DNA of 64,000 bases, from positions 32,734-96,733 of the forward strand of contig NZ_JACHMI010000002.1 in the NCBI RefSeq assembly GCF_014207985.1, written 5' to 3'. Position numbers and translations under genes: made by a program. Shown here in pieces: positions 1-64,000 of the stretch (position 1 is its first letter; every line of letters begins with the position of its first letter). This stretch comes from Nonomuraea rubra. Its GTDB lineage: Bacteria; Actinomycetota; Actinomycetes; Streptosporangiales; Streptosporangiaceae. The notes beneath the pieces are model-generated. The model searched no databases and was not told the origin of the DNA. It worked only from the letters and a program-made list of their open reading frames with translations.

Positions 1-128
1 ACGACATGGCCGACGCCGCAGTGCTCGCCGCGCTGGGAGCCGACTACCTCGGGCACCCGCTCGCGGACATGCCGAAGGCGCACCGCGCTGCGATCGACAA
101 GCTGACGTGGCCGGAGGTGGCCAAGTGA
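1..128 (+). CDS. C-terminal end of an unidentified small phage-type protein (partial)
   Basis: An open frame enters from the left edge and stops with TGA at 126-128. The last 42 residues or so are visible (ending ...KLTWPEVAK), with no recognisable domain. Its stop overlaps the GTG start of the next gene in a GTGA arrangement, so it belongs to the same translationally coupled early operon. The N-terminus lies outside the window, so no function can be given. Confidence 0.6.
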   Translation, partial: DMADAAVLAALGADYLGHPLADMPKAHRAAIDKLTWPEVAK

Positions 129-1051
129 CACGAGACCCCTACGCCGAAGCCCGACGCCGCTACTGGCAGAAACGCGACAAGGAGAAGAGAGCGGGCACCT
201 GGCAGGGCCTCGTCGATGCCGAAGAAGCGCGCCAGCACGTGCGGGAGTTGCATCGAATTTGGCTGGTCAGCTACGAGGCAATCGCCGAACTCGCAGGGAT
301 CTCGCACACGACAGTAAGGCACCTCGCTGTAGGCAGTGCGACTCGGCAGCTACCGCCACCGGCTCGGGTCGGGGCGTACACAGCCGAAGTGCTTCTCACG
401 GTCACCGTGGACGACCTGCCGGACAACTGCCTGGTCAACGCGACCGGGTCAATGCGGCGGATGCGCGCGCTATCGGTCGAGGGGTGGCCCGTGCGGTACA
501 TCGCCAACCAGATGGACGCCGCCTGGGACGGTCTCAAGCAGCTTCGGCGCGGCGAGAGAACCACGGTCGTCCTACGAACTGCCCGCCTGCTCCGGCGGAC
601 GTACGACGAACTGATCCTCCTCGACCCGTACGCGCACTGCCGCAAGACCGTCGTGACGACCCTGCGCAAGCAGGCCGCCGCCAGCGGCTGGTATCCAGCG
701 GCAGCGTGGGCCGACGCCATCGACGACCCCGCCGCCAAACCATGGCATGTCGTCCGCTGCTCCTACCAGACCTGCATCAACGGGTCCAAGGACGAGCGCC
801 TGCTGTGCGACACCCACCTGAAGCTGCTCAAGAAGCGGGGCACCCTCGAAGGGGCCCGCCTGATGCGGAACACCCAGGCCCTGCTGGAAGACGCCCGGTT
901 CATCCTCGCGACGGACCCGCCGATCAACCCGCGCACGCAGGAGATCGACAAGGAGCGGCTCGCCGAACGGCTCGGCACCAACTGGGAAGCGCTGGAGCGC
1001 GTCCTGCTCCGAGCGAACATCAACCTCGGCAAGCTGCGCGAATCCGCATGA
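125..1051 (+). CDS. Helix-turn-helix phage protein with possible zinc site
   Basis: The product is 308 aa and probably DNA-binding. A helix-turn-helix is visible at about residues 48-70 (EAIAELAGISHTTVRHL), and a second HTH-like stretch lies at about 115-145. Cys212, Cys217, Cys228 and His231 could bind zinc, and the C-terminus (about 278-300) looks like another small helical DNA-binding segment. GTG at 125 is preferred over GTG at 107 because GGAGG lies 9 nt upstream and the start overlaps the previous stop. It leads the early gene chain, and a regulatory or replication-linked role is inferred only from the HTH. Confidence 0.75.
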   Translation: MTRDPYAEARRRYWQKRDKEKRAGTWQGLVDAEEARQHVRELHRIWLVSYEAIAELAGISHTTVRHLAVGSATRQLPPPARVGAYTAEVLLTVTVDDLPDNCLVNATGSMRRMRALSVEGWPVRYIANQMDAAWDGLKQLRRGERTTVVLRTARLLRRTYDELILLDPYAHCRKTVVTTLRKQAAASGWYPAAAWADAIDDPAAKPWHVVRCSYQTCINGSKDERLLCDTHLKLLKKRGTLEGARLMRNTQALLEDARFILATDPPINPRTQEIDKERLAERLGTNWEALERVLLRANINLGKLRESA

Positions 1052-1101
1052 GCCAGAAGCGGAACCGCAATCAGGTAGTCGAGCAGGAGCAACGCCCATG
1101 A
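1048..1101 (+). CDS. 17-residue coupled micro-ORF
   Basis: ATG at 1048 overlaps the stop of the upstream HTH gene, and its own TGA (1099-1101) overlaps the ATG of the next gene, so both ends are coupled by ATGA. The peptide is basic and polar (MSQKRNRNQVVEQEQRP). It spans a degenerate copy of the dispersed palindrome. It may be a coupling peptide that carries ribosomes across the operator rather than a functional protein. Confidence 0.35.
   Translation: MSQKRNRNQVVEQEQRP
1052..1075. repeat. Degenerate copy of the dispersed 24-bp palindrome
   Basis: The right half (ACCGCAATCAG) matches the family perfectly and the left half is degraded; about 19 of 24 positions fit the family consensus. It lies between two HTH genes. 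This is the weakest accepted member and depends on the better copies elsewhere. Confidence 0.4.
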
Positions 1102-1394
1102 GCAACACGGCGACCGAGGTCATCTCCGACGCCCTTACGTCCACCTCACCCAGCGCCGACGACATCCTCGACGCCCTCGGCAACGCGGGCTACCACGTCA
1201 TCCGACCCGAGGACGGGCCGGCCTGGATCCCCGTCACGCCGAGAAGCCTCGCCAAGGCGCAACGCATCGCAGCGCTGATCAACGACGGCAAGACGCTGCA
1301 GCAGATCGCCGCTGAGACGCGGATGTCGCTGCGCCAGGTCGAACGGTACAGCGCCGCCGCCCGCGACATGGGACTCATCGAGCGGAGGCGCTGA
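1098..1394 (+). CDS. Small helix-turn-helix protein
   Basis: The 98-aa product has a C-terminal helix-turn-helix at about residues 66-92 (TLQQIAAETRMSLRQVERY) ending in a basic tail. The N-terminal 50 residues are acidic to neutral with no known motif. It is coupled upstream to a micro-ORF and downstream to a WhiB-like gene by ATGA overlaps. It is probably a transcriptional regulator of early phage-type genes; its target is unknown. Confidence 0.7.
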   Translation: MSNTATEVISDALTSTSPSADDILDALGNAGYHVIRPEDGPAWIPVTPRSLAKAQRIAALINDGKTLQQIAAETRMSLRQVERYSAAARDMGLIERRR

Positions 1395-1687
1395 TGCCCG
1401 GCCGCAAGGGGTGGCGGAACCGCGCCGCCTGCCGAGGACAGGACCTGGTCCTGTTCTTCGGACCCGGTGAGGGCGAGCCCCGCGAGAGCCCAAAGCAGAA
1501 GGAGAACCGCATCGAGCGGGCCAAGCACTTCTGCCGCACCTGCTCCGCCCAGGCCGAGTGCCTGGACTTCCATCTGCAGGCCAGCGCGGCGCAGTACGGC
1601 GTCGCCGGAGGCCTCGACGAGGACGAGCGCACGGCCTACCGGCGGCGCCTGCAACGCAAAGCAGCACGAGAAAGGAGAACCCCGTGA
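1394..1687 (+). CDS. WhiB-like Fe-S transcription factor
   Basis: The 97-aa product has the four-cysteine WhiB signature: Cys13, Cys47, Cys50 and Cys56 (AACRGQD; HFCRTCSAQAEC). These should bind a 4Fe-4S cluster. The turn normally written G[V/I]WGG reads GVAGG here (about 69-73), followed by a basic C-terminus fit for DNA contact. WhiB-like proteins are actinobacterial and are often carried by actinophages and plasmids to modulate host sigma-factor-dependent transcription. It overlaps both neighbours by 4 nt or less, so it is co-translated with them. A second WhiB-like gene lies at 56.5 kb. Confidence 0.88.
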   Translation: MPGRKGWRNRAACRGQDLVLFFGPGEGEPRESPKQKENRIERAKHFCRTCSAQAECLDFHLQASAAQYGVAGGLDEDERTAYRRRLQRKAARERRTP

Positions 1688-1953
1688 CAAGCCTCGCCCG
1701 CGAGAACGCTATCAAGGGACTCGCGCACCGCGCCTACGACCGCGACCACACCGACGCCGGGGAACGGCCCAGCACCACGGACTTCGCGTTCGAGTACGTC
1801 ACCTGGCTTCTCGCCCAGGGCTGGAGTGAGCCGCCAGAGGCTCAACCGGCACCCGCTCCCGCGTCTCCGACGCCCCCGAACGGGCTGCGTGGGGCGGCCA
1901 TCGCTCGTCACGCCCTGGCCCAGATCGGCAAGGGAGGCAGCGATGACCGCTGA
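1684..1953 (+). CDS. Unknown phage-type protein
   Basis: The product is 89 aa. The GTG start at 1684 overlaps the WhiB-like stop (GTGA), which decides the start over upstream in-frame codons. The sequence is mixed charged N-terminally and proline/alanine-rich around residues 50-65. No family is recognised. It sits in the early coupled chain. Confidence 0.6.
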   Translation: MTSLARENAIKGLAHRAYDRDHTDAGERPSTTDFAFEYVTWLLAQGWSEPPEAQPAPAPASPTPPNGLRGAAIARHALAQIGKGGSDDR

Positions 1954-6171: not shown

Positions 6172-6195
6172 GCTAATAGCGGTACCGCTATCGTT
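6172..6195. promoter_or_regulatory. Dispersed 24-bp palindrome, copy upstream of the initiator gene
   Basis: The core ATAGCGGTACCGCTAT (6176-6191) is a perfect 16-bp palindrome, flanked by GCTA on the left. It lies between the J-domain gene stop and the replication-initiator-like gene, where an operator would be expected. Its protein partner is unknown. Confidence 0.7.
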
Positions 6196-6251: not shown

Positions 6252-7253
6252 ATGGGTTACAAGTTGGCCGACGAGGTGGCGATCAACGCGCCTAAGAGCA
6301 CGCCTCCGAGGGACCTGCTCGCGTTGATCGCCATCGCTCGCAGGATCAACGACGCGACTCGCACCGGCTGGCTGACCCGCGAGGAGATCGCGCACTGGGC
6401 GAGGATCGACGTGCGGTCGGTGAAGGCGATGCGGGAGCGGCTGGTCGAGGCTGGGCTGCTCGTCGTGCTCGAATCGGGGGGCGGCCGCCGGAAGGCGACC
6501 GTGTTCTACATCCCTCCGATGCCTGGGTATCTGCCCGGGGAGCCGCCGCGTCCGCTCGACCTGGAGCTCGAAGCGGGCCCCTCGGACTTCCCCGTTTCGG
6601 GGCCGGACGGGTCCACGGGGGACCGGAAAGGGGGAAGTCCAGACTTCCCCGTTTCTCCTGTGGATGACGCTGTGGACGACCGGGAGACCGGTGGAAAAGG
6701 GGGAAGTCCAGGCTTCCCCGTTTCCGCGACCGAAAGGGGGAAGTCTGGACCGCAAAAGGGGAAGTTTGGGGCGAAAAAGGGGAAGTTTGGGGCGAAAAAG
6801 GGGAAGTCTGGACTTCCCCCCAATCCTCTCTCCACTCCTCAACTTCAATCCTCTTCTTCTCCGTACGGGGTCGAGGAGGAACCAAGCGCCCAAGCCGCCG
6901 ACCACCACCCGGAAGACGAAGACAAGATCAGCAAGGAGGAGAAGAACACCCCGGCGGCCAGCCGCGCCGCCCGGGTCATCACCAAGCGCATCGGAGTGCC
7001 GCTCGACGAAGCCGAGCGCATCGCCCAGACCATCGCCCACGAAAACCGCGTCCGCCGAGCCCTGCACGTGTACGTCGCGGGTATCCCCGCAGCGGACCTG
7101 CGCACCTGGCGCGAGACCGCCCGCAACCACGAAGCCCGCGAACAGGCCAAGGCCACACGGACCAACCGCCCCGCCGGCCGGTGCGACCTGCACTGGCAGC
7201 CCATCCCCTGCATCGGGTGCGCGGCCGACGCCAAGGCTATGCCCGACGCGTGA
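6252..7253 (+). CDS. Winged-helix replication-initiator-like protein with internal iterons
   Basis: The product is about 333 aa. The start is taken at ATG 6252, which has AAGGGG just upstream; GTG 6216 is the alternative. The N-terminal 90 residues are a winged HTH (GWLTREEIAHWARIDVRSVKAMRERL). The middle is low complexity, because the DNA there carries seven repeats of a GGGGAAGT core and so encodes repeated KGKFGAKKG-type peptides. The C-terminus is helical and charged with a terminal CDLH...CIGC motif. A wHTH initiator whose gene contains its own origin repeats recalls lambda O. The initiator function is inferred from this architecture. Confidence 0.65.
   Translation: MGYKLADEVAINAPKSTPPRDLLALIAIARRINDATRTGWLTREEIAHWARIDVRSVKAMRERLVEAGLLVVLESGGGRRKATVFYIPPMPGYLPGEPPRPLDLELEAGPSDFPVSGPDGSTGDRKGGSPDFPVSPVDDAVDDRETGGKGGSPGFPVSATERGKSGPQKGKFGAKKGKFGAKKGKSGLPPNPLSTPQLQSSSSPYGVEEEPSAQAADHHPEDEDKISKEEKNTPAASRAARVITKRIGVPLDEAERIAQTIAHENRVRRALHVYVAGIPAADLRTWRETARNHEAREQAKATRTNRPAGRCDLHWQPIPCIGCAADAKAMPDA
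6583..6819. repeat. Iteron-like array, candidate replication origin
   Basis: Seven copies of a GGGGAAGT(C/T)-type unit occur in about 240 bp inside the initiator-like gene. Three are perfect or near-perfect inverted pairs, GGGGAAGTC-NN-GACTTCCCC (6631-6650, 6700-6719 with one change, 6800-6819). Direct single units lie at 6737, 6758 and 6779, and one reversed unit at about 6585. The 3' side (6820-6865) is a C/T-rich, lower-GC stretch that could melt. This resembles the lambda-type ori layout. Confidence 0.65.
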
Positions 7254-49364: not shown

Positions 49365-49366
49365 GT

Positions 49367-50329: not shown

Positions 50330-50331
50330 GC

Positions 50332-51960: not shown

Positions 51961-52023
51961 CAAGACGCGGCGTAGCTGCCCCGACCGCGCACGGGCTCGC
52001 CAGCCTGGCCGCGTCTCGTCTGA

Positions 52024-52320
52024 TCACCCGACCGTCCTCCTCAGGGCGTCGGGAAGTTGATGGCTCAGGGCAGGAGGTACCGGGCGTAGGCCGTTCTGGA
52101 TCGCCCAGCGACGGCTCTGGCGCTGCGTGTCGCGGATGCACGTCCACAGCGCCTCGGGGTCGTTCCAGTCGCCTGTGTGGTAGATGCCAGCCGTGTTCCA
52201 GTACCCCCGGTAGAACGCGATCACCAGCTCCTCGACCTGGAGAACCAGCCACCAGTAGCCGGTCTCCAGCTCCAGCCGATCCGCCCACCCGCGGTCCGTA
52301 CGATCTCTGACCTGATTCAC
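52024..52320 (-). CDS. Small unknown protein coupled to DUF574 methyltransferase
   Basis: The 98-aa product overlaps the methyltransferase stop by 4 nt (ATGA), so it is its co-translated partner. The aromatic-rich middle (ETGYWWLVLQVEELVIAFYR ... WNTAGIYHTGDWND) has no known motif and no signal peptide. Function unknown. Confidence 0.6.
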   Translation of the reverse strand: MNQVRDRTDRGWADRLELETGYWWLVLQVEELVIAFYRGYWNTAGIYHTGDWNDPEALWTCIRDTQRQSRRWAIQNGLRPVPPALSHQLPDALRRTVG

Positions 52321-53174
52321 GACGCCTCCGCCATGGACCGGGCGAACGTCTCGAATCGCGCCACCGCGGCGACGAAGTGAGCTCGGCCAACGTCGAGCGG
52401 CATCGCGGTATCGGGCCGCCAGGTGGAGGCTTCCACCAGGCCCGGCTCAAGGAGTTCGAGGCCGCCGAGGAACATCGACTTGATCACGTCCAGGGACCGG
52501 GGATAGATGTCGGCCGTGGCCTTGTAGTCCGCGATCATCTTCGCCCGCTCCTCCGACGTCAGGAGGTCGTCCCGGGCGTGGCTGAAGATGAAGTAGCCGG
52601 ACGGGAAATGGGCCATGTAGCGGCGCAAGATGCTGGCCGGCTTCTTCCCGTCAGGCGCGAAATGCGCGACCGCCGTCGCGATCATCCCCACGGGCTGGCC
52701 CGGGTCGAGCAGGCTCCTCGTCGCCTCGTGCCTGAGCACGGCGTCCACGTCCCAGGCGTCGCCCTCGATCAGGCTGGCCGCGCCGGGGACGTCGAGCATC
52801 GCGCGCCCATGGACCGCCACGTGCTGGTCGTTGTCCACGTAAACGACGCGCGTCCCCTTGTGGTGCTGGACGGCTGTGTCGTACGTGGTCTCGCCGTTCT
52901 GCGGTGGGAGGCCACATCCCAGGTTCAGCCACTGGCGGATGCCGTGCTCCTTGGCGACCACCCTGGTGGCGCGGGTGACGAACTCCACCTGCGCGCGGGC
53001 GGCCGTGCGGATCTGTCCCGCAGTCTGCTCCAGTGCCCCCAGCACATCCCGGTCCGGAGCAAGGTTGTCCTTGCCGCCGGTCGCGGCGTCCCAGACGCGG
53101 GCGATGGACGGCCTGGAGAAGTCATAGCGGCCTTCACCGGCCGCGTCGTGGGGAGCCACCCTGCTGGCGCTCAT
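52317..53174 (-). CDS. SAM-dependent methyltransferase, DUF574 type
   Basis: The 285-aa product is of the actinobacterial S-adenosyl methyltransferase (DUF574) family: YDFSRPSIARVWDAATGGKD near the start, WLNLGCGLPP (about 82-91), VVYVDNDQHVAVHGRAML (about 109-126), and IATAVAHFAPD. The family is abundant in streptomycetes; substrates are mostly unknown, often assumed to be secondary metabolites. It diverges from the XRE regulator gene, with a 295-bp promoter region between. Confidence 0.82.
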   Translation of the reverse strand: MSASRVAPHDAAGEGRYDFSRPSIARVWDAATGGKDNLAPDRDVLGALEQTAGQIRTAARAQVEFVTRATRVVAKEHGIRQWLNLGCGLPPQNGETTYDTAVQHHKGTRVVYVDNDQHVAVHGRAMLDVPGAASLIEGDAWDVDAVLRHEATRSLLDPGQPVGMIATAVAHFAPDGKKPASILRRYMAHFPSGYFIFSHARDDLLTSEERAKMIADYKATADIYPRSLDVIKSMFLGGLELLEPGLVEASTWRPDTAMPLDVGRAHFVAAVARFETFARSMAEAS

Positions 53175-54702: not shown

Positions 54703-55574
54703 TGGCGTCCACAGTAGAGGTCGCCGCGATGCGGCGTGCGATTGCGGTGTCGGCGCTGGGGCTCGGCACGACGAGCCCGAACCCGCCGGTGGGCTGTGTA
54801 GTCCTCGACGCTGGCGGACGCGTGGTTGGCGAGGGCTTTCACCGTCGCAAGGGTGAGGCGCACGCGGAGGGCAACGCCCTCGCGGCGGCGGGCGCCGCTG
54901 CACGCGGTGGGACGGCTGTGGTGACCTTGGAACCCTGCAACCATGTGGGTCGCGCTCCTGCCTGCCGCGCGCTGTTGATCGAGGCTGGGATTGCTCGTGT
55001 AGTGGTTGCCGTCGTTGACCCTACGTCCCGAGGAGAAGGTGGCGTGGCTGAGCTGCGCCGGGCGGGGGTAGACGTCGAGGTCGGGGTGTTGGCCGACGAG
55101 GCCGAGCTGGTCCTGCGTCCCTGGCTGACCGCGCTGGGACGGGGTACCCCGTTCGTCACCTGGGCGTACAGCGCCGACGCCGAGGATCACCGCCAGGTCC
55201 CTGCCCTCGACGTGCACGGGTACGACGTTGTGGTGGGCCCTGATGGGCAGTTGCGGGAGGGCACACCGGGCGGGCATGGCGACACGTTCGTCCTGCCTGG
55301 TGAACTACCGCAGGGCAGTCCGGAGAAGGTGCTGCAGGCCCTCTACGCAGCGGGAGTCCGGTCGCTGCTGATGCTCAGTGCACGTGGACTCGCCGAGCTG
55401 TACGCCAATGCGGGTCTGGTTGACGAGATCCTTGTCCACCTGCCTGGCCGCGCTGCCTCCTCGCCGGGAGGCGAACTGCCTTCCGCAGGCTTTCGTGTCT
55501 CAGCCGTTCGTCGTCTGGAAGATCACGTGCTGGTGCGGGCTCAGCGGGAGGATCCGCCGTTCAGGGCGAGGTGA
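54702..55574 (+). CDS. RibD-like deaminase with a reduced reductase domain
   Basis: The 290-aa product has an intact deaminase domain: TSPNPPVGCVV (24-34), HAE (54-56) and EPCNHVGRAPAC (77-88), giving zinc ligands His54, Cys79 and Cys88 with Glu56. The C-terminal half is only about 150 residues and lacks the usual RibD reductase motifs. A bifunctional role in riboflavin synthesis is therefore unlikely; a free-standing nucleotide or nucleobase deaminase is more plausible. It is coupled to the XRE regulator and converges on the GntR gene, overlapping it by 14 bp. Confidence 0.8.
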   Translation: MASTVEVAAMRRAIAVSALGLGTTSPNPPVGCVVLDAGGRVVGEGFHRRKGEAHAEGNALAAAGAAARGGTAVVTLEPCNHVGRAPACRALLIEAGIARVVVAVVDPTSRGEGGVAELRRAGVDVEVGVLADEAELVLRPWLTALGRGTPFVTWAYSADAEDHRQVPALDVHGYDVVVGPDGQLREGTPGGHGDTFVLPGELPQGSPEKVLQALYAAGVRSLLMLSARGLAELYANAGLVDEILVHLPGRAASSPGGELPSAGFRVSAVRRLEDHVLVRAQREDPPFRAR

Positions 55575-56262
55575 GCGGCAGCCGCTGATCCACGATGTGC
55601 ACCCTTTGTGGGTTGGCCAGCCGGCGCAGCAGTTGAAGAGGCTGACCAGCCTGGTTGTAGGTAATGCGGGTGAGGTCGAACAGAGGGCTGCCGCGGCTGA
55701 CCCGGAACGTCAGTGCCTCCTTCGGGCTGGCCGTACGGACACGGGTCTGCAGCTCTACAAGGGCCGTTGAGCGCTCCACGTCGTAGCTGCTGGCGTCGTG
55801 CCGCTCCATTGACCAGTACAACTGATCGAGGCACACGAGTTGGCCTTCTATGTCGCCGCGTATCTCGCCGATGATCACTTTTGCCTTGGCCGGGAGACGG
55901 AGGATGTGGGAGACCTCCTCAGTCGCGGGCGTGGCACGGCTATTGACGGTTGTTAGGTGGCCGGTGATCCCGGCTCGCTGGCACGCGGCTGCCCACGCGG
56001 TGGGCTCGTCGCGGAAGTCGATGGCCATGGGGATCTGGATGGCGACGGCTGGTCCGAGGACGATCATGCCTTTGTTGGCGACGCGCCAGATCAGCCCCTC
56101 TTCCTTGAGGGCCCGCATGGTGTTGGTGATGACCTGTCTGCTGACGCCGTAGGCGCGCATGAGGTCTTCAGTGTGGGGGAGGGGTTCGCCCGGGGGATGG
56201 GTGCCGTCGAGGATCTTGGTCCGGAGGTCGGCTAGGACCTCGGGAAACCTCGCGACGGGCAC
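55561..56262 (-). CDS. GntR-family repressor (KorSA-like)
   Basis: The 233-aa product starts at GTG 56262, with GGAG 10-13 nt upstream. The N-terminal winged HTH (7-70) has PLPHTEDLMRAYGVSRQVIT and RVANKGMIVLGP; the C-terminal half (about 95-230) resembles the UTRA ligand-binding domain. In Streptomyces plasmids and integrative elements, KorA/KorSA-type GntR proteins repress the tra operon and themselves. It is transcribed away from the transfer genes, with a palindromic operator in between. Confidence 0.85.
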   Translation of the reverse strand: MPVARFPEVLADLRTKILDGTHPPGEPLPHTEDLMRAYGVSRQVITNTMRALKEEGLIWRVANKGMIVLGPAVAIQIPMAIDFRDEPTAWAAACQRAGITGHLTTVNSRATPATEEVSHILRLPAKAKVIIGEIRGDIEGQLVCLDQLYWSMERHDASSYDVERSTALVELQTRVRTASPKEALTFRVSRGSPLFDLTRITYNQAGQPLQLLRRLANPQRVHIVDQRLPLTSP

Positions 56263-56550: not shown

Positions 56551-56871
56551 ATGTCCAGCCACATCGTGGCATCGCCGTTCGGCGTTGTCACATCCGACCC
56601 CACCCCTGACTTCGACGCGATCCTCACCAGCGACGCCAAGTGCCGCCAGCCCGGCACCGACCCCGACGACTGGTACCCCCTCGACGACAGCTTGGCCTAC
56701 GACGAGGACTACGCCCGCGGCCTCTGCGCTGGGTGCCCGTTCACCGGCCTGGCCGGCGAGTGCGTGAACCGGGCGCGGGAGCTGCCGTTCGACGCCTGGG
56801 GCGTCATCGGCGGCACCACCCCGACCGAGCGCCGCCGCCTCGGCATCGGCTTCTACGAGGTGGCGGCGTGA
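56551..56871 (+). CDS. WhiB-like protein at the start of the transfer module
   Basis: The 106-aa product has four cysteines, Cys31, Cys59, Cys62 and Cys71 (AKCRQ; LCAGCPFTGLAGEC), and GVIGGTT at 84-90, where the usual Trp of the turn is replaced by Ile. It probably binds an Fe-S cluster and modulates transcription. AAAGGA precedes the ATG by 12 nt. It is the first gene after the GntR operator and overlaps the next gene by GTGA. Confidence 0.82.
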   Translation: MSSHIVASPFGVVTSDPTPDFDAILTSDAKCRQPGTDPDDWYPLDDSLAYDEDYARGLCAGCPFTGLAGECVNRARELPFDAWGVIGGTTPTERRRLGIGFYEVAA

Positions 56872-58331
56872 GACTGCTCGCCCCGAACCCGAACCGCGAG
56901 CACGCACGGCTTGAGGCGGAGCGCATCCGCCTGGAGCAGGCGGAGCTTCGCGAAGCGGCCCGGCGCAAGCAAGAGCTCGAAGAGGCCGAGCACCGCGCCG
57001 CCCTGTCCGAGCGGGCGGGCGAGCTCGCCGAGCAGGAGCAGACCCGGATCGCCGCCGAGGCCGACGCCGAGGCCGAGCGTAACCGCGCGAAGTGGCGAAA
57101 GCGGCGTGAGGTCTGGACCGAGCGCACCCGGACGGCCGGCCGCCTGCTGGTCATGAGCACGACGAACCTCGGCGTCAACCTCGTCGCTGTCAGCGGTCAG
57201 GCGATGTCGTTCATGCAGCGCGGGCTCCCGCCGCTGTGGGCCATCCTCGCGGCCGGGATCGTCGAGTCCGTCGCCGTGTACGTCTCCTGGCACGCCCACG
57301 TGGCGCTGCGGGAAGGCGACGCGGCCTGGGCCACCCGCATGTGGTCCTACGCGATCGGCGCGGGCGCTGGGTACCTGTCGTACACGCACGTGCAGGACTA
57401 CCCGGAGCTGTTCGCGGCCTGCTCGCTCGCGAGTCCGTGGCTGTGGTCGATGCACTCTCGGCACCTGCACCGCCAGGACCTACGGGCTCAAGGGCTCATC
57501 GACCCGAGGGCGCCCAAGTTCAGCGTGCTGCGCTGGCTGCTGCACACCAAGGAGACGTTCGCCGCGTTCAAGTGGGCGGTCAGCGAGGGTGTGCAGTCGC
57601 CGCACGTCGCTGTCGAGGTGGTGCGGACGCGCCGCGCCGTCCGGACGACGTGGCGGACGGTGGACGAGGCGCAGACGGCGGTGGTCGCCGCGCAGCGGAC
57701 GCAGTTGGAGCTCGCGCTGACCCAACTCGCCGCCCTGTCGGAGGAGCTGTACGGCGTGGACCCGGACGCGTTGGCGGCCAAGCAGACGATCGCGCGGTTC
57801 GTCCACCGCGTCGGCGGCGGCATGTTCCCGATGTACCGTCCGCTGCCGCCCGTCGAGCTTCGTCCGGCGGACGAGCGGACGGACGGTGCGCAGACGGACA
57901 GCGCGGACGACAGCCGGACGGACGGCGGACGGACGACGGACAACGAGCCCGAGCAGAAGCGGCCGGACGACGCGGACGGCAAGTCCCGTCCGGCCGGACG
58001 GCGCGGCCGGAAGCGCCCGGACGGACGACGCCCGTCCGGGCGGACGAACGGCGGACGGACGGCGCAGACGGGCGGTCGGTCCGCAGGTACTGCGGACGTC
58101 GCGGACGTGCTGCCGCTCGGACGGACGATCCTCGCCGACCATCAGCGGGCCGGCGTCCGGCTGACACGCGACCGCCTCGCGGCCGGGGTCAAGGCGGCCG
58201 GACAGACGATCAGCAACGAGCGCGCCAGCGCGCTGCTGAGGGCGCTGCAGACGAGCGTCTCGTCCGCCACGGACGGCGCGGACGAGAACAGTTCGTCCGC
58301 CGACGACAACGACGACAAGGGGACGAACTGA
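56868..58331 (+). CDS. DUF2637/Spd-like membrane protein
   Basis: The 487-aa product has a charged N-terminal coiled coil (about 12-78), a membrane region (about 95-200, including GQAMSFMQRGLPPLWAILAA and IVESVAVYVSWHAHVALREG) typical of DUF2637 proteins, a helical part, and a low-complexity Arg/Asp/Gly linker encoded by CGGACG repeats. The C-terminus (about 430-465) contains an HTH-like RAGVRLTRDRLAAGVKAAGQ. DUF2637 and Spd proteins support plasmid spread within mycelium together with the TraB ATPase. Confidence 0.75.
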   Translation: MRLLAPNPNREHARLEAERIRLEQAELREAARRKQELEEAEHRAALSERAGELAEQEQTRIAAEADAEAERNRAKWRKRREVWTERTRTAGRLLVMSTTNLGVNLVAVSGQAMSFMQRGLPPLWAILAAGIVESVAVYVSWHAHVALREGDAAWATRMWSYAIGAGAGYLSYTHVQDYPELFAACSLASPWLWSMHSRHLHRQDLRAQGLIDPRAPKFSVLRWLLHTKETFAAFKWAVSEGVQSPHVAVEVVRTRRAVRTTWRTVDEAQTAVVAAQRTQLELALTQLAALSEELYGVDPDALAAKQTIARFVHRVGGGMFPMYRPLPPVELRPADERTDGAQTDSADDSRTDGGRTTDNEPEQKRPDDADGKSRPAGRRGRKRPDGRRPSGRTNGGRTAQTGGRSAGTADVADVLPLGRTILADHQRAGVRLTRDRLAAGVKAAGQTISNERASALLRALQTSVSSATDGADENSSSADDNDDKGTN

Positions 58332-58346
58332 TGAGCACCAACCGGA
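57866..58346. repeat. Dense CGGACG repeat cluster
   Basis: About 23 CGGACG hexamers, many in overlapping CGGACGGACGG runs, lie within 480 bp of the DUF2637 gene and just past its end. TraB-type ATPases of Streptomyces plasmids recognise clusters of 8-bp repeats (TRS) at a clt locus, so this is a candidate. Confidence 0.55.
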
Positions 58347-58759
58347 CGGACCAGACGACCGAACTCGGCTGCTACCTGCCCATGTGGGACGAGGCCAACG
58401 ACGAGTTCCACAACGGGTGGCTGACCTACCGGACGGACGACCCGTTCTTCGTCCGTCTGGAGATCGAGGACTGGCCCCTCACGGTGGCTGCGCCTCGGAT
58501 CGTTCTCCTGGACGGCTTGAACGGTCGGGCCGAGTGCCTGTCGAAGCCGGACCGCACCGCACTGCGGGTCCAGCCGTCCTCGGACGGCGCGTACGTGCTA
58601 CTCGGGATCACGCAGGGGGACCTGCTCCTGGCGGTGTTCCGCACGCCCGCTGACGTGCTCGCCCGGCACCTCGTCGGCATGCACGAGCTGGTGCCGGAGC
58701 AGGAGGAGATGACCTGGATCGACTGGGACACCGTGATCGCCAGCCTCATGCAGGCGTGA
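58331..58759 (+). CDS. SsgA-like (SALP) protein, tentative
   Basis: The 142-aa product fits the SsgA/SsgB pattern in outline: LTYRTDDPFFVRLEI (like the LxYxxxDPYAVxxxF start), an Arg/Pro turn, LRVQPSSDGAYVLLGI (like the L-S-P-x-G-x-A segment), and a C-terminal helix with LARHLVGMHELVPEQEE. SsgA-like proteins guide septum and cell-wall events during sporulation. The RDLLxxG motif is not obvious, so the link is remote. ATG 58331 overlaps the previous stop. Confidence 0.5.
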   Translation: MSTNRTDQTTELGCYLPMWDEANDEFHNGWLTYRTDDPFFVRLEIEDWPLTVAAPRIVLLDGLNGRAECLSKPDRTALRVQPSSDGAYVLLGITQGDLLLAVFRTPADVLARHLVGMHELVPEQEEMTWIDWDTVIASLMQA

Positions 58760-58920: not shown

Positions 58921-59145
58921 GTGCCCACCAAGCCGACCCGCCGCAAGGCCCGCAAGGCCCGCTTCCACGCCCGCATCGCGGGCGCGCCCACCACCAAGGA
59001 GGCGTTCCACGAGGCCATCCGCTACCTCACGGCCGAACTCGCGGACGTGCACAACGCCGACGAGGCCGAGGGCGATCGGCTCTACACGCACTACGCCGCC
59101 GAACTCCGTAGCAGCGGCGACGACGTCAACCGCCAGAGGAGGTGA
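58921..59145 (+). CDS. Small basic/acidic protein in transfer operon
   Basis: The 74-aa product has a basic start (PTKPTRRKARKARFHARIAG) and a helical acidic middle. GTG 58921 is preceded by GGGAGGAG. It lacks membrane segments and may bind DNA or the ATPase. No family recognised. Confidence 0.6.
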   Translation: MPTKPTRRKARKARFHARIAGAPTTKEAFHEAIRYLTAELADVHNADEAEGDRLYTHYAAELRSSGDDVNRQRR

Positions 59146-59147
59146 AC

Positions 59148-59597
59148 ATGCGCAGCATCCGCTCCCCGTACCCCGCCGAGTCGAAGCCGAAGGACGAGCA
59201 GCCCGACCAGAGCGCCGAGCAGCCCCAGCCCGCCACCGACGAGGGCGAGACGGTCGCCCCAGTCGTGCCCCTGCGCGACGACCAGCCGCCGGCGCCCACC
59301 AGGCCCGCCGCGCCGCGACTGGACCAGCTCGTCGAGTTCGTCCAGGGCCCACTGTCGGACTGGATCGCCCGCGAGCGGCCCTCCTACCTGGCAAGCCCGG
59401 TCACGTTCGTCCGGGAGCGGTGGTCGCCGTCGTGGCTGCCGGGTGACGTCCGCGCCCTGGTGTGGGCGTGGCGGGTGCTGCTGCTGGCCCGCGCGCTGCT
59501 GTACACCGCGTTCTACATCCCCGCCATGACGATCTTCCTCCCGGAGCTGACCACGGCCGCGATCGTCGCCTCGCTCATCCTGTACTTCTTCGCCTGA
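59148..59597 (+). CDS. Membrane protein, Spd-like
   Basis: The 149-aa product has a long disordered Pro/Glu-rich N-terminus (1-55), an Arg/Trp-containing amphipathic segment, and a hydrophobic C-terminus (about 104-149) with two closely spaced membrane spans. AGGAGG precedes ATG 59148. Such small membrane proteins cluster upstream of TraB in Streptomyces plasmids (spd genes) and aid intramycelial spread. The function is inferred from context. Confidence 0.65.
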   Translation: MRSIRSPYPAESKPKDEQPDQSAEQPQPATDEGETVAPVVPLRDDQPPAPTRPAAPRLDQLVEFVQGPLSDWIARERPSYLASPVTFVRERWSPSWLPGDVRALVWAWRVLLLARALLYTAFYIPAMTIFLPELTTAAIVASLILYFFA

Positions 59598-59611
59598 AAG
59601 GACCCCTCACC

Positions 59612-60025
59612 GTGGACAACCTGCTCGTCGGACTCGGCGGCGTCACCGCCCTGATGCTCGCCTTCGGTGTCGGATTCATCTGGAAGAAGACCGCCCCGAA
59701 GTTCACCGCCTGGTGGATGCTCGTCGCCGGCGTCGGCCTGATCGGCACGTTCTTCGAGGCCATCGTCCGCGCGGTCACCGGCCGTCTCCACCCCGTCATC
59801 CCGGCGATCCTGCTGGGCGTCTGCGCCGCCATCTGGCTCGCGGACGTCTGGGGCAAGTCGAACAAGGTCGGCCGCGCCACCGCGATCGTTGCCACGGTCA
59901 TCCCCACGTTGCTGGTCGTCAGCGCCATCACGGTCTTCGGCATCAACACCGCCGATCTCGGCCGCGATGCCAAGAAGGCATGGCAGGACACCATGACCGC
60001 CGACGTCGAGGGAGGCCGCGAGTGA
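59612..60025 (+). CDS. Multi-pass membrane protein, Spd-like
   Basis: The 137-aa product has about four membrane segments (about 1-22, 33-52, 62-80 and 90-110) and a soluble tail. It resembles the small spread-type membrane proteins of conjugative actinomycete elements. GTG 59612 follows AAAGGAC. It is GTGA-coupled to the next gene. Confidence 0.68.
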   Translation: MDNLLVGLGGVTALMLAFGVGFIWKKTAPKFTAWWMLVAGVGLIGTFFEAIVRAVTGRLHPVIPAILLGVCAAIWLADVWGKSNKVGRATAIVATVIPTLLVVSAITVFGINTADLGRDAKKAWQDTMTADVEGGRE

Positions 60026-60876
60026 TCACCGTCATCCTGCTGCTGGCCCTGTCCGGAGTCATCACCGCCGCGCTGGTCAAGCGCCCCGACGCCCGCGCCG
60101 CCACCATGGGCGGCCTCCGGGCCGGCACGGCTCAGGCAGAGCTCGAGTTCCGGCGCGGCTTCACCGCCGCGCGCACCCACTACGACCAGGCCCAGAAGTA
60201 CCTCACCCGCCCGACCGCGTCTGGCGCCCCGCCGGGACCGCGCAACCTCCGCTGGTGGACCTCCCTCGCCTTCGGAATCGTCGGCGGCACCACCGCGGCG
60301 GTCGCGGGCGGAACGTACGGACTGCTCAAGGTCCTCGGTGGCGCAGTCCGCATCGGTCGCCAGGCTACCGAGGGTGCCCGTCAGGCCTACCGCGACTACC
60401 AGGCCACCCGCGAGATCGAGGAGGCCGAGGTGGTCGAGGACGCCGAGGAGGACGCCCCGCAGACCGAGGAGGAAGCACCCGAGGAGACGCCCGAGCTGTC
60501 GGCGCCCGCCGACCATCCGCCCACTGACAAGCCCGTCACCGACCTGACCATGTACGACACGCCCGAAGGGACCACCGTGAACGCCGAATTTGTTTCATTC
60601 CCCCAGCTCAGGCACGACCACGCGACCGCCAGCACCGACATGACGCAGGTGGCCGCAGCCATCGACGGCCAGATGGGTGGCCTGGCGTCGAAGCGCATGG
60701 GCCGCGGCGCGCTCATCGCGGCGCTGATGGCCGCGCACGAGACCGCGACCCAGCTTGCCGCCCAGCACGCGGAGATCGCGGCCCTGGCCGCCGCTCAGTC
60801 CTCCGTGGCCGAGGCTCACGCGGCGGTCGGCGGCGTGGACAACGTGGCCGACAAGGAGGCGTACGCGGAGGGCTGA
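60022..60876 (+). CDS. Membrane-associated protein preceding the transfer ATPase
   Basis: The 284-aa product has an N-terminal membrane segment (2-20, ITVILLLALSGVITAALVK), a hydrophobic Gly-rich segment at about 80-105, a very acidic linker (Glu/Pro, about 130-180), and a helical C-terminal domain (about 190-284) rich in Ala. It could anchor or regulate the neighbouring TraB ATPase. No family is firmly recognised. Confidence 0.65.
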   Translation: MITVILLLALSGVITAALVKRPDARAATMGGLRAGTAQAELEFRRGFTAARTHYDQAQKYLTRPTASGAPPGPRNLRWWTSLAFGIVGGTTAAVAGGTYGLLKVLGGAVRIGRQATEGARQAYRDYQATREIEEAEVVEDAEEDAPQTEEEAPEETPELSAPADHPPTDKPVTDLTMYDTPEGTTVNAEFVSFPQLRHDHATASTDMTQVAAAIDGQMGGLASKRMGRGALIAALMAAHETATQLAAQHAEIAALAAAQSSVAEAHAAVGGVDNVADKEAYAEG

Positions 60877-60920: not shown

Positions 60921-62828
60921 TTGTCCAAGGTCAGCAAGCAGAAGCCGACCGAAGAGGTCGCCCGCACAGTGAGGCGGGTCGCGTTCCGTCAGCGATACCG
61001 CATGGTGATGGCGGCTCCGTTCGCGTGGCTAATAGCGCTACCGCTATCAGCAGGAGTCCACCTGCTGCCGGTCCACCCGGCCGTGGCCGTCCTCATCGCG
61101 GCGGCCACGGCTGTGGTCCCGGTCCGAAAGGCAGTCCAGGCCCGCCAGAACGTCGCCGCTGCGGCGTTCGGCGCGGCCTGGCTCATCGCCACCGCCCCGA
61201 TCGGTCCCACCGGATTGGTGGTCGAGGTCGGGGTGGCCGGCTGGCTGACGTTCGCGCTGCTGCACTGGCGGCGGCACCGCCGCCTGCCCCTGCCCGGCCG
61301 CGCGCCGGTGGTCGAGGAGGAGCCGCTGATCACCGTCGAGCAGGTCGCGTTCGACCCCGAGATAGCGCGGATCATCGCGCGGTTCAACGAGCGCCTGGCC
61401 GCCAAGGGCAAGGCGCTGGACGGCATGACGCTGACGACGCCGAAGCGGATTGACGCCGGGTACCGCGCAGAGATCCGGGCGGTGCCCGGCGAGAAGGAGA
61501 CCAAGGACATCATGCAGGCGGCCGGAAAGGTCGCCTCCGCGTTCCAGACCTCGACGCAGCTCGCCGTCCTGGAGCCGTCGCCCTCGGGGGACAACTCCCG
61601 CGCCCTGTTCACCTTGCTGCAGGATGACACGCTGGCGCAGGTGCGCCGGTTCGAGGACGTCCAGCCCCGCATCGGCGCAGACGGCCGCGCGCACATCGGC
61701 TACTTCTACGACCTCGCCCCGGCCCACTGGGCGTTCTTCACAGAGTCCGGCGGCATGCGGCACGGCATCATTGTCGGCGACTCCGAAGCGGGCAAGTCCC
61801 GCTCAGTGGAGACGCTGCTCGGTCTGGCCCACCAGTCCGACAAGGTCGCCACCGTGCTGCTCGACCCGCAGGGCGGCTCCATGCCGGACTGGAACGACCG
61901 CACCCACCGCTGCGCCCTCGGCGAGGACGACTGCGCGGACGAGCTGGAGCTGTGGCACTGGGTGATGCGCCGCCGCGTGCGCCATCTCGCGCGGATTCCA
62001 TGGGTGGACGAGGACGGCGACGAGCGGATCGGCAAGACGCACCTGGTGCCGGGTGACCCCGACGCGGGCGGCATGACAGGGATCTTCTTCGTCCTGGAGG
62101 AGGCGCCGGAACTGCTGACGCACGACGTGCACGGCAAGAAGGCGGTGGCTACGCTCGCGTCCGGCGCGAAGACCTGGCGTAAGGGCGGCGGCGGGATCGT
62201 CCTGGTCGCGCAGGACCCGAACATGACCGAGCTGGGCGGGTCGGTGACGCTGCGGGCGCAGCTCCGCAAGAACGCGTGCGCGCTGCGGACGCAGACGCCC
62301 GGCGCGGCCTACCAGATGGGGCTCCCGCAGGACCCGTCGCTGCTCCCGGCGACGTTCAAGAACGGGAAGCTGACGCAGGGCCTGGCCTACCTGTCCGGAA
62401 TCGACCGGCGGGCCGCGCTGATGCGGTGGCTGTACACCGAGAAGCCGAAGTACATCGCCCGCCAGCCCGCCGCCGGCCAGATCGACGACCTGACGATGGG
62501 CTGGATCGAGGAGTACACCAGCGCGAAGAAGGATGGGCGCGAGCCGCGCACGGGCAAGCCCGCGGCCGCGGGGGACGAGCCGCGTTCGACGCCGGGTGAC
62601 GTGAAGGCCGCGATCATCGACGTGCTCGATGACGCGGATGGCCTGGCTCTGGAGTTGGGGGAGCTGCTGCACCTGGTGCTCAAGCGGCGGGTAACGGCAC
62701 CACCGAGCGAGATCCACACGCAGCTCAAGCGGCTCGTGAAGGACGGGCGGGTGTGGCTGGTCGGCAAGGACGGGGGAGAGGCGTACGCCCTTCCTGAGGA
62801 GATTTTGGAGCGTCTGGAGGCCCGATGA
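60921..62828 (+). CDS. traB: FtsK/SpoIIIE-type transfer ATPase (TraB-like)
   Basis: The product is 635 aa and starts at TTG 60921 (GGAG upstream). Two N-terminal membrane regions (about 25-70 and 75-112) precede the motor domain, with Walker A GDSEAGKS (about 285-292) and Walker B IFFVLEEA (about 388-395). The C-terminus (about 560-630) looks like a winged helix, as in FtsK gamma and TraB TRS-binding domains. TraB moves double-stranded plasmid DNA between hyphae without a relaxase. A palindrome of the dispersed family lies in its first 45 codons. Confidence 0.88.
   Translation: MSKVSKQKPTEEVARTVRRVAFRQRYRMVMAAPFAWLIALPLSAGVHLLPVHPAVAVLIAAATAVVPVRKAVQARQNVAAAAFGAAWLIATAPIGPTGLVVEVGVAGWLTFALLHWRRHRRLPLPGRAPVVEEEPLITVEQVAFDPEIARIIARFNERLAAKGKALDGMTLTTPKRIDAGYRAEIRAVPGEKETKDIMQAAGKVASAFQTSTQLAVLEPSPSGDNSRALFTLLQDDTLAQVRRFEDVQPRIGADGRAHIGYFYDLAPAHWAFFTESGGMRHGIIVGDSEAGKSRSVETLLGLAHQSDKVATVLLDPQGGSMPDWNDRTHRCALGEDDCADELELWHWVMRRRVRHLARIPWVDEDGDERIGKTHLVPGDPDAGGMTGIFFVLEEAPELLTHDVHGKKAVATLASGAKTWRKGGGGIVLVAQDPNMTELGGSVTLRAQLRKNACALRTQTPGAAYQMGLPQDPSLLPATFKNGKLTQGLAYLSGIDRRAALMRWLYTEKPKYIARQPAAGQIDDLTMGWIEEYTSAKKDGREPRTGKPAAAGDEPRSTPGDVKAAIIDVLDDADGLALELGELLHLVLKRRVTAPPSEIHTQLKRLVKDGRVWLVGKDGGEAYALPEEILERLEAR
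61028..61051. repeat. Dispersed 24-bp palindrome inside the transfer ATPase gene
   Basis: GCTAATAGCGCTACCGCTAT and flank: one core change from the family (GGTACC to GCTACC). It is in frame, encoding LIALPLSA. This copy links the transfer module with the phage-type modules. Confidence 0.65.
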
Positions 62829-63184: not shown

Positions 63185-63360
63185 TAGATCGCGAAGATGA
63201 CGAACGCTACGAAGAGAACCGTTGCGATGCCTGCGAAGACCTTCTTGCCCAAGGTGTCTAGCGGCACGGGCTCACGTTGCGACTGATCGACAATGGATTT
63301 TTTGCCCTGCTCGGCCACCAATCGGCGATGCCTGTCGTGGCCCTCCTGGAAGCTGTCCAT
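63166..63360 (-). CDS. Small tail-anchored membrane protein
   Basis: The 64-aa product starts at ATG 63360, with GAGG upstream. It has a hydrophilic N-terminus and one C-terminal membrane span (KVFAGIATVLFVAFVIFAIY). It overlaps the end of the previous gene in the opposite direction by 19 bp. Such small anchored proteins on mobile elements sometimes mediate exclusion or toxicity, but nothing specific is visible. Confidence 0.5.
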   Translation of the reverse strand: MDSFQEGHDRHRRLVAEQGKKSIVDQSQREPVPLDTLGKKVFAGIATVLFVAFVIFAIYYDSLP

Positions 63361-63446
63361 CCGGGTCCTCTTTCGGGTGGGGGCTCTTGCAAGAGTACGA
63401 CCACTCTTAGGCGTAATCCAGTCGCTCGATGTAATGGATGGCTTGA

Positions 63447-63475
63447 GGTGCGTCAGACGCGTCATATGCGTCATA
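63447..63475 (+). repeat. TGCGTCA/GCGTCAT repeat cluster upstream of the excisionase-like gene
   Basis: GGTGCGTCAGACGCGTCAT and a following ATGCGTCATATGC give three GCGTCA units at a spacing of about 9-10 bp. The first 19 bases recur, with one change, inverted at 7448-7466. Confidence 0.5.
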
Positions 63476-63557
63476 TGCTTACGATGGAAGGTAGTGCGAA
63501 AGCGTGACAAATGCGGGCCGCTGCTCAACGTGGCGGCTGGCTAGCGGAGGGACAACG

Positions 63558-63743
63558 GTGGCAGAGAAGCACCTGACTCCAGAGGACCTGGCGGAACGCG
63601 TGGGGGTGCCTGTCTCGACGGTGTACCAGTGGAACTCTCGTGGCGGAGGGCCGCGCTTCATGAGGGTTGGCAGGTACGTGCGTTACAAGATCGCGGACGT
63701 GAGCGCCTGGGAGGAGTCGTTGTACGCCGAGCAGGCCAGCTGA
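63558..63743 (+). CDS. xis: Excisionase-like HTH protein
   Basis: The 61-aa product starts at GTG 63558 with GGAGGGA upstream. It is a MerR/AlpA-like winged HTH: TPEDLAERVGVPVSTVYQWN, RGGGPRFMRVGRYVRYKIAD, then an aromatic helix. In pSAM2-type elements such proteins direct excision with the integrase, usually encoded directly after. Here a terminator follows at once, so any partner integrase would be the recombinase at 13.5 kb or a gene beyond the window. Confidence 0.8.
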   Translation: MAEKHLTPEDLAERVGVPVSTVYQWNSRGGGPRFMRVGRYVRYKIADVSAWEESLYAEQAS

Positions 63744-64000
63744 CCGTGGAAGATGTGGCCCCGGATCACAGAGAGTGATCCGGGGCCATGGCGTCTCGGG
63801 CTGTCGCTGGCCTCTGCCTGGTTCTGTGTCAGTTCTGCCTGAAAGTGGCGAGCGATGACAAGCGATGACAAGTGAAGGCAAGTATCTGCCCAGGTGAGCG
63901 ACCATTTTGCGGGATCGGCCGCAGATGGGACTTTTGCGTGCCGAAGATCTACACGATCTTCGAGGGGCACGAGCGAGATCCAGCGGCTGATCATCGGCCG
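63744..64000. other. Window edge, mostly non-coding
   Basis: The stretch holds a terminator hairpin and a direct repeat AGCGATGACA (63850-63870). A GTG at 63938 opens a frame that reaches the window end (21 codons, MPKIYTIFEGHERDP...), which may be the start of a gene, but there is too little sequence to judge. Confidence 0.4.
63756..63788 (+). terminator. Terminator after the excisionase-like gene
   Basis: A 14-bp stem (TGGCCCCGGATCAC / GTGATCCGGGGCCA) with a 5-nt loop, 13 bp after the stop. Confidence 0.8.

What the first reader, a model, noticed from the sequence alone, without database searches (positions are those of the whole stretch)
1..64000. Siphovirus genome module joined to a conjugative FtsK/TraB module, possibly one phage-plasmid or phage/ICE replicon
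Seen in sequence: a complete head, tail and lysis set (18.3-46.6 kb), an initiator-like gene with iterons, an interior Xer-like recombinase, and a GntR-WhiB-DUF2637-Spd-TraB-Xis block (53.4-63.8 kb). Known: phage-plasmids, including linear ones in Streptomyces, and TraB-based integrative elements each exist. Inference: the two are joined here. In an integrated prophage the integrase sits at an end; here it lies between early and structural genes, and the palindrome family spans both blocks. A virion-forming element that can also transfer through TraB would be unusual.
Basis: partly seen in the sequence, partly recalled or inferred. Interest (0 to 1): 0.85.

Follow-up and report, generated by a model that had tools for sequence, protein, structure and literature searches.

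The report
Virus-plasmid hybrid with hyphal transfer gene
A 96.7-kb mobile element, very probably of the soil actinomycete Nonomuraea, carries a full set of virus-particle genes and, between the same two ends, a TraB-type DNA-pump gene, so it is predicted to spread both as a virus and, likely, by direct DNA transfer between filaments; one such two-way element (pZL12 of Streptomyces) has been reported before.

Summary
The window is the last 64 kb of a separate 96,733-bp contig. Joined, the contig's ends form an attP matching the 3' end of an intact acyl-CoA dehydrogenase gene on the chromosome. The true integrase sits at the element's end, outside the window; the interior recombinase is a second one. 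In Nonomuraea sediminis the whole ~96-kb element, phage and TraB modules together, is integrated at that gene with attL and attR. Two other genomes carry it at the 3' end of glnA. Of 14 strong TraB matches in 118 genomes, 11 lie beside phage structural genes; 3 are on partial contigs. Both modules are under purifying selection. TraB's predicted fold matches FtsK motors and the conjugation coupling protein TcpA. The pairing is therefore one conserved element. That TraB moves the DNA between hyphae is inferred. It is not categorically new: plasmid-phage pZL12 has a like layout and reported conjugal transfer, and the published plasmid-phage PhiNon1 of N. gerenzanensis carries the same TraB family, not mentioned in the passages I read. 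New here are the integrating lineage and the swapping of TraB/FtsK modules among unrelated phage heads.

The parts
6252..7253 (+). replication initiator, lambda-O-like, with iteron-like repeats inside the gene
   Evidence: phrog_391 E 3.8e-6; 21-bp x 4.1 repeat 6728-6813; 3 palindromes 6631/6700/6800; Pfam no hit
13465..14433 (+). second, interior tyrosine recombinase (Xer/integrase family), not the att integrase
   Evidence: PF00589 E 3.9e-27, phrog_1; the att integrase is C2:138-1397, outside the window
16139..16768 (+). ParB_N-domain protein
   Evidence: PF02195 E 3.3e-12
18287..18772 (+). likely small terminase (by position); its PHROG carries another label
   Evidence: phrog_645 'Rnase E' E 4.1e-25; no Pfam hit; role inferred from place before TerL
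18769..20055 (+). large terminase
   Evidence: phrog_2 E 3e-45
23595..25169 (+). portal protein
   Evidence: phrog_533 E 2.5e-99; 42-47% to the 20 listed Streptomyces phage portals
25169..27145 (+). minor head protein / head morphogenesis
   Evidence: phrog_12049 E 1.5e-91
27389..28150 (+). scaffold-like protein
   Evidence: phrog_8952 E 8.8e-36 (function unknown); phrog_233 head scaffolding 1.4e-5
28201..29139 (+). major head protein
   Evidence: phrog_283 E 1e-72
30666..31019 (+). minor head / neck protein
   Evidence: phrog_556 E 1.8e-18
31533..32009 (+). major tail protein
   Evidence: phrog_3884 E 9.1e-46
33387..35759 (+). tape-measure protein
   Evidence: phrog_6090 E 1.3e-67
37456..40173 (+). 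tail protein, first of two tandem paralogues
   Evidence: phrog_31834 E 1.1e-30; 47% identical over 866 columns to the next
40793..43570 (+). tail protein, second paralogue
   Evidence: phrog_31834 E 5.5e-26
44973..45938 (+). endolysin
   Evidence: phrog_880 E 8.5e-44
46650..53174 (-). variable cargo: SHMT, ABM monooxygenase, PhyH dioxygenase, methyltransferases
   Evidence: shared with G049 but, apart from one 167-column piece in G024, not aligned in G024, G039, G008
55561..56262 (-). GntR/UTRA regulator at the head of the transfer module
   Evidence: PF00392 E 7.5e-13, PF07702 E 7.4e-10
56551..56871 (+). WhiB-family protein
   Evidence: PF02467 E 1.2e-7
56868..58331 (+). membrane protein (hydrophobic stretches seen by eye) in the DUF2637 position
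   Evidence: no Pfam hit; position matches the DUF2637 gene of PhiNon1; found in G049, G039 and G008 but not in G024
58331..58759 (+). SsgA-like protein (sporulation/septation family)
   Evidence: PF04686 E 2.2e-4, 21.5 bits, below its cut-off of 25
58921..60876 (+). four small Spd-like proteins (58921, 59148, 59612, 60022), three with hydrophobic stretches by eye
   Evidence: no convincing family; 60022 has a homologue before TraB in PhiNon1 (42% over 86 aa)
60921..62828 (+). TraB-type FtsK/SpoIIIE dsDNA translocase: N-terminal helices, motor, C-terminal winged helix
   Evidence: purifying selection; a later start (61083) is possible
63558..63743 (+). excisionase-like HTH protein, beside attP
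   Evidence: PF12728 E 2e-9; homologues in G039, G026, G024, G049, G008
63944..64000 (+). left part of the attP core, identical but for one inserted base to the 3' part of the chromosomal acyl-CoA dehydrogenase gene
   Evidence: continues in the first ~32 bases of the contig
6176..6191 (.). palindromic operator-like site ATAGCGGTACCGCTAT; others at 8691, 11977, 28157, 31484, 34204, 45938, 61032
   Evidence: several at corresponding positions in relatives

Best explanation
This is one att-bounded 96.7-kb phage element that also encodes a TraB-type translocase module, and it likely spreads both as siphovirus particles and by predicted TraB-driven transfer of its double-stranded DNA between hyphae. 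Shown from sequence: a single int/xis/attP set bounds both modules, the same arrangement is integrated as a unit in relatives, and both modules are under purifying selection. Inferred: in the lysogen the element sits in the 3' end of a coding gene (acyl-CoA dehydrogenase here, glnA in some relatives), restoring the gene's last codons, or persists as a circle with its own initiator. On induction, packaging genes make virions. Under GntR control, the TraB module (membrane proteins, SsgA-like protein, TraB) would pump the circle through hyphal contacts or septa, as TraB plasmids and AICEs do, letting the element colonise a mycelium without lysing it.
For: The window is C2:32734-96733 of a 96,733-bp contig beside a 12.78-Mb chromosome. 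C2 begins with a tyrosine integrase (138-1397) and ends with Xis. End joined to start gives an attP whose 36-bp exact core and surroundings match the 3' end of an intact chromosomal acyl-CoA dehydrogenase gene. In N. sediminis (G039) the orthologous gene is split by the whole element with attL and attR; in G049 and G024 it is at the 3' end of glnA with a 42-43%-identical integrase. In N. antri (G008) a 99,127-bp contig reads through xis-attP-int and its two ends map to the same point of C2 (19,812 and 19,824), as a full circle would. Of 14 TraB matches with E<=1e-50 among 118 genomes, own included, 9 lie 36-41 kb from the same portal type, 1 lies about 22 kb from a PhiNon1 portal and 1 beside a PhiNon1-like lysin and a distant terminase. 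Portal and TraB are on one contig in Sphaerimonospora and Thermocatellispora (same contigs by length). Two of four IMG/VR records with TraB hold this portal, but one has the length and portal coordinates of G036 and the other the portal score of G019, so they are not independent. Pairwise dN/dS in four relatives: TraB 0.12-0.28, portal 0.07-0.16, TerL 0.09-0.16, no stops. TraB fold: FtsK motor (E 2.1e-12) and TcpA conjugation coupling protein (E 8.1e-11). [quoted passage not shown]
Against: No transfer, virion or induction data. TraB is far below the NCBIfam plasmid_TraB equivalog cut-off (23.5 vs 800 bits) and slightly below Pfam's (21.7 vs 24); its model is of moderate confidence (pLDDT 73.9, pTM 0.55). 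No clt site was identified. The protein in the DUF2637 position is not found in G024. FtsK-like translocases also occur in plaque-forming Streptomyces phages, so the gene could serve an intracellular phage task. Three loci with a related portal (G042, G004, G033) showed no TraB in the flanks searched, so the module may be dispensable.
Confidence: 0.62

Rival explanations
1. One element, but TraB does not do conjugation: it is a phage-owned FtsK-like motor used inside the host, for example to spread or segregate the prophage circle along the mycelium at septation or to clear septa during sporulation.
For: FtsK-like translocases are found in the Streptomyces phages Galactica, Hiyaa, Spocter and Keanu, the closest isolates by portal; a weak SsgA-family (septation) match lies in the module; no clt site found; no relaxase was matched among the proteins scanned.
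Against: Module layout (GntR, membrane proteins, FtsK) resembles that of pZL12, whose conjugal transfer was reported; TcpA, a conjugation coupling protein, is among the best fold matches.
Confidence: 0.27
2. Two neighbouring elements, a prophage and an AICE, joined by chance in this contig.
For: Cargo of metabolic genes (46.6-53.2 kb) lies between the blocks; two tyrosine recombinases are present; three portal loci without detected TraB.
Against: One att pair bounds both blocks in three chromosomes; spacing of portal and TraB is 36-41 kb in nine places; co-occurrence in three genera.
Confidence: 0.03
3. A decaying prophage that has become a conjugative plasmid or AICE, with phage genes as remnants.
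For: For P1-like phage-plasmids, gain of mobilisation functions goes with loss of phage genes (passages in PMC10879196).
Against: None of the five structural genes examined (TerL, portal, capsid, major tail, tape measure) nor the lysin has a stop in the four relatives, and dN/dS is 0.07-0.29 for them.
Confidence: 0.08

Closest known systems
pZL12 / Streptomyces phage ZL12 (GQ919031)
   Same: Circular element of 90 kb with phage structural genes, parAB, and a GntR - membrane protein - large protein - FtsK block; reported replication, conjugal transfer and lytic cycle (title in reference lists and one passage; the paper itself is not held).
   Different: Its FtsK is not detectably related to this TraB by tblastn or by the TraB profile; the window's terminase, portal and capsid gave no match in it. 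I saw no integrated copy of pZL12 and searched for none.
PhiNon1 of Nonomuraea gerenzanensis (NZ_LT559120, 59,257 bp)
   Same: Published plasmid-phage, integrated and circular forms shown by PCR (passages); carries the same TraB family (36% identity) with a DUF2637 gene and small proteins before it.
   Different: Head proteins without a match to the window's, HK97-type; tRNA-Val att site; TraB convergent to the tail genes. The paper's text has no occurrence of 'conjugative' and I saw no mention of a transfer gene in the passages read.
Streptomyces sp. NBC_01483 plasmid (NZ_CP109440)
   Same: Related head genes (TerL 54%, portal 42%, capsid 25%) plus GntR, DUF2637 and an FtsK-like protein.
   Different: Its FtsK is of the pZL12 type (78% identical to pZL12.71c), not this TraB: the module differs on a related head.
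Actinomycete integrative and conjugative elements (AICEs, pSAM2 type)
   Same: Tyrosine integrase, Xis and att at one end, single FtsK-type translocase, GntR regulator (AICE features recalled).
   Different: A complete virion module; att sites in coding genes; 96 kb.
Streptomyces phages Galactica, Hiyaa, Spocter, Keanu
   Same: Closest isolated phages by portal (45-47%); annotated translocase or FtsK-like gene.
   Different: Their FtsK was found only with the pZL12 query (24-26% identity), not with this TraB; no integrase annotated in the 25-kb stretch of Hiyaa that I viewed.

Membership tests
Phage-plasmid (plasmid-phage) | Complete virion morphogenesis and lysis genes | tested here: met
   six of these genes open and under purifying selection in four relatives. 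The holin is not identified.
Phage-plasmid (plasmid-phage) | Own replication initiator | tested here: met
   Two initiator-like genes, window 6252-7253 (E 3.8e-6) and C2:1929-3002 (E 4.8e-7), modest PHROG matches, no Pfam or NCBIfam hit
Phage-plasmid (plasmid-phage) | Extrachromosomal state in the lysogen | tested here: inconclusive
   Separate contig with seamless attP and intact chromosomal attB; circle-like contig in N. antri; no read depth available
Phage-plasmid (plasmid-phage) | Release of infectious particles | not testable with these tools
   -
AICE | Site-specific integration by int/xis at att | tested here: met
AICE | Single FtsK/TraB-type translocase, no relaxase or T4SS | tested here: inconclusive
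   Translocase present; no relaxase or T4SS matched among the proteins scanned, but not every ORF was scanned
AICE | AICE-type Rep (RepSA, RepAM or prim-pol; recalled) | not tested
   Initiators found match phage initiators modestly
AICE | Conjugal transfer | not testable with these tools
   -
NCBIfam NF041214 plasmid_TraB equivalog | Score above curated cut-off (800 bits) | tested here: not met
   23.5 bits, E 1.8e-5: distant relative, not a member

The most novel reading that the evidence does not exclude
Filamentous actinomycetes host a whole class of dual-route viruses: tailed temperate phages that have repeatedly captured and swapped TraB/FtsK hyphal-transfer modules (at least two TraB/FtsK types on at least three head types), so that a provirus can sweep through a mycelium as naked double-stranded DNA without lysis and leave it in virions. 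For this TraB family the phage is its normal home.
Probability: 0.45. Interest if true: 0.82.

Novelty: new variant of a known kind. Interest (0 to 1): 0.6.

Why it matters
Phages and conjugative elements are usually treated as separate transmission strategies, and a survey whose passages I read describes, for P1-like phage-plasmids, conjugation-related functions gained as phage functions are lost (PMC10879196). Here an open virion set and an open translocase are kept together under purifying selection in several species. In a mycelium, where one lysis event can destroy a shared cytoplasm, moving DNA through septa may be the better route; these elements make that testable. It also suggests that mobility typing misses them: PLSDB labels PhiNon1 and NBC_01483 'non-mobilizable'.

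Tried and rejected
Considered and rejected: chance neighbourhood of prophage and AICE (att sites); the interior recombinase as the att integrase (the end-located one is beside attP); linear plasmid with telomeres (no exact inverted terminal match of 7 bases or more). tRNA att site: no tRNA in the window; ten flank loci held two tRNAs, one about 12 kb outside the G049 element and one in the flank of G029, whose boundary I did not determine. Led nowhere: a clt site near traB (only low-complexity coding repeats at 57865-58064); exact direct repeats at the ends, none of 16 bases or more in G049 and none of 18 or more in G029 and G038 (G049 has an 11-base match in the glnA 3' end). Operator control of the transfer block: the one palindrome there (61032) lies inside the traB frame and is seen within two mismatches in own, G049 and (by my arithmetic on position) G039, not in G024 or G008. 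PDB sequence search with TraB: nothing at E<=0.01. TraB in 50,697 phage records: none at E<=1e-5; the FtsK of the G001 locus: none; control: pZL12's FtsK found 8 records, two of them ZL12 itself. Literature: nine searches; no listed title or shown abstract opening describes a TraB module on Nonomuraea prophages. Only open-licence PMC is held. I read passages of six papers and saw the rest as listings.

Results against my reading: 12 further TraB matches weaker than E 1e-50 were not examined except G041:C14 and G036, which lie on a contig with a portal. A 19th portal (G033) appears split and its fetched flank had no TraB. G013 and G017 have PhiNon1-like portals (84%, 81%) but no TraB match. The one stop seen in the G039 integrase is three codons from its end.

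Full report
WHERE THE WINDOW LIES. The window is bases 32,734-96,733 of contig C2 (96,733 bp) of a two-contig, 12.88-Mb genome. Names given here to G handles (G008 N. antri, G026 strain NEAU-A123, G029 N. fuscirosea, G038 N. cavernae, G039 N. sediminis, G041 N. basaltis) rest on those contig lengths. I read the other 32.7 kb of C2 and called genes on the closed sequence.

ENDS OF THE ELEMENT. C2 starts with a tyrosine integrase (C2:138-1397, minus strand; PF00589 E 1.6e-15) and ends with a small HTH excisionase (window 63558-63743). Joining end to start gives an 89-column stretch that aligns to the 3' end of a 430-codon acyl-CoA dehydrogenase frame on the chromosome (C1:7,755,221-7,753,929; family read from the translation by eye), including a 36-bp exact core that stops at the last base of C2; the element-borne end encodes the same last residues (AVTGLPVR) and a stop. 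The chromosomal gene is intact, so the attB is empty in the assembled chromosome. That the contig breaks exactly at the edge of the core suggests an assembly-graph break at the att site; it is compatible with a circle or with a mixed population.

INTEGRATED COPIES. In N. sediminis (G039, contig 11) the orthologous gene is split: the left junction reads from the gene into the element's integrase end, and the right junction reads from the element's Xis end into a second copy of the gene's 3' end. Between them the element is collinear with C2, from integrase and initiator through head, tail and lysis to TraB and Xis, apart from the cargo and smaller gaps. In G049 and G024 the same element, with an integrase 42-43% identical, is inserted at the 3' end of a gene encoding a type I glutamine synthetase (identified by reading the G049 translation), with the shared sequence ACACGTCGTAG or longer at both ends. 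In N. antri (G008) the 99,127-bp contig reads through xis-attP-int, and its two ends map to C2 19,812 and 19,824, as expected of a whole circle; a tandem array is not excluded. G036 has a stand-alone 94,716-bp contig.

CO-OCCURRENCE. Among 118 genomes (own included), TraB has 14 matches at E<=1e-50. Nine lie 36-41 kb from a portal of this type on the same contig. One lies about 22 kb from a portal identical to that of PhiNon1 (G049). One (G012) lies beside a lysin 66% identical to that of PhiNon1 and a terminase 25% identical. The other three (G041:C570, G041:C69, G019:C208) have no portal on their contig; C570 and C208 are too short to reach the expected place (62,670 and 10,162 bp by the matching records) and C69 is a fragment match. 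Outside Nonomuraea the pair is on one contig in Sphaerimonospora mesophila and Thermocatellispora tengchongensis. Of four IMG/VR records with TraB, two hold this portal; they look like copies of G036 and G019.

WHAT THE MODULES ARE. Head and tail: see parts. The transfer block runs GntR, WhiB, a membrane-like protein, an SsgA-like protein (E 2.2e-4, below Pfam's cut-off), small proteins, TraB. In a 12-sequence alignment TraB keeps an invariant G-K-S of a Walker A motif (residues 291-293) and an invariant E394 in the Walker B position (motif names are mine). The AlphaFold model (pLDDT 73.9) has N-terminal helices, a motor and, by its secondary structure, a C-terminal winged helix; the best PDB matches are FtsK motors on dsDNA and TcpA, the pCW3 conjugation coupling protein.

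SELECTION. Pairwise Nei-Gojobori dN/dS against G049, G024, G039 and G008: TraB 0.12, 0.28, 0.27, 0.20; portal 0.07, 0.10, 0.16, 0.11; TerL 0.16, 0.09, 0.16, 0.09; capsid 0.12, 0.07, 0.15, 0.22; lysin 0.20, 0.21, 0.29, 0.25. None of the 17 genes compared has an internal stop apart from one in the G039 integrase, three codons from the end. The protein in the DUF2637 position was not found in G024; GntR, int and xis diverge more, as att or specificity types change. Both modules are maintained.

REGULATORY SIGNATURE. A 16-bp palindrome ATWGCGGTACCGCWAT occurs 14 times in C2 within two mismatches (0 in each of 20 mononucleotide shuffles) and 13, 8, 15 and 7 times in G049, G024, G039 and G008, several at corresponding places, such as before the initiator (6176, in all five) and the capsid gene (28157, in three of five) (window-only count and dinucleotide control). 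It looks like a phage repressor operator set (inference). Its one site in the transfer block lies inside traB.

COMPARISON. pZL12 (phage ZL12) has GntR (pZL12.80), a membrane protein (73c), a large protein (72c) and an FtsK (71c) beside its phage genes. [quoted passage not shown] that these are 71c-73c is my inference. The Streptomyces plasmid NBC_01483 has head genes related to the window's (TerL 54%, portal 42%) but an FtsK 78% identical to pZL12's. PhiNon1 has this TraB family (36%) on a head without a match to the window's or, for the 14 PhiNon1 proteins tried, to ZL12. G001 and G023 have more distant portals (46%) with a further FtsK type about 20 kb away. So translocase modules and heads recombine, and the pairing recurs. 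Closest plaque-forming isolates by portal (Galactica, Spocter, Hiyaa, Keanu) carry translocases found with the pZL12 query.

VERDICT. One real, conserved, integrating phage element with a TraB-type transfer module; a new variant of the pZL12 kind of plasmid-phage. That it forms virions and that TraB moves it between hyphae are inferences from homology, layout and selection, not shown here.

Noticed in passing
window 7823-8728: A collagen-like (Gly-X-Y) protein with hydrophobic stretches at both ends lies in the early region, missed by my gene caller.
   Followed up: partly
window 46650-53174: Minus-strand cargo resembling a small biosynthetic cluster (SHMT, ABM monooxygenase, PhyH dioxygenase, methyltransferases), shared with G049 but hardly aligned in G024, G039 or G008.
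   Followed up: partly
window 58331-58759; L101:41200-41661: SsgA-family proteins lie by the TraB module both here (weak match) and in PhiNon1, hinting at manipulation of septation.
   Followed up: no
window 37456-40173 and 40793-43570: Two tandem tail proteins 47% identical to each other.
   Followed up: no
G049 (L063-L068, L081, L113-L117): This genome, which holds a PhiNon1 portal at 100% identity and so is probably N. gerenzanensis, also carries a 98-kb sister of the window's element in its chromosome, not mentioned in the passages I read of the N. gerenzanensis genome paper.
   Followed up: partly
G001:C10 ~304 kb and G023:C6 ~375 kb (L153, L154): Distant prophages (portal 46%) have a different FtsK/TraB-type gene about 20 kb from the portal on the opposite strand; the G001 one has no match in 50,697 phage records.
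   Followed up: partly
L107 start and L099 end (N. antri contig): Contig ends carry what look like Nextera transposon adaptor bases (adaptor recalled), a library artefact.
   Followed up: no
L004:8269-9948 (C2:28269-29948): Large protein with a Gp3-like recombination-directionality-factor domain (PF18897, E 1.4e-32) although the att integrase is a tyrosine recombinase.
   Followed up: no
NZ_CP109340 and other Streptomyces plasmids of about 90 kb: Ten of the 40 plasmid records listed for this TraB are also among the 50 listed for the ZL12 gene 67c, a terminase by its hits; in S. decoyicus the FtsK lies about 2 kb from the terminase, so the pairing seems common in Streptomyces plasmid-phages.
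   Followed up: partly
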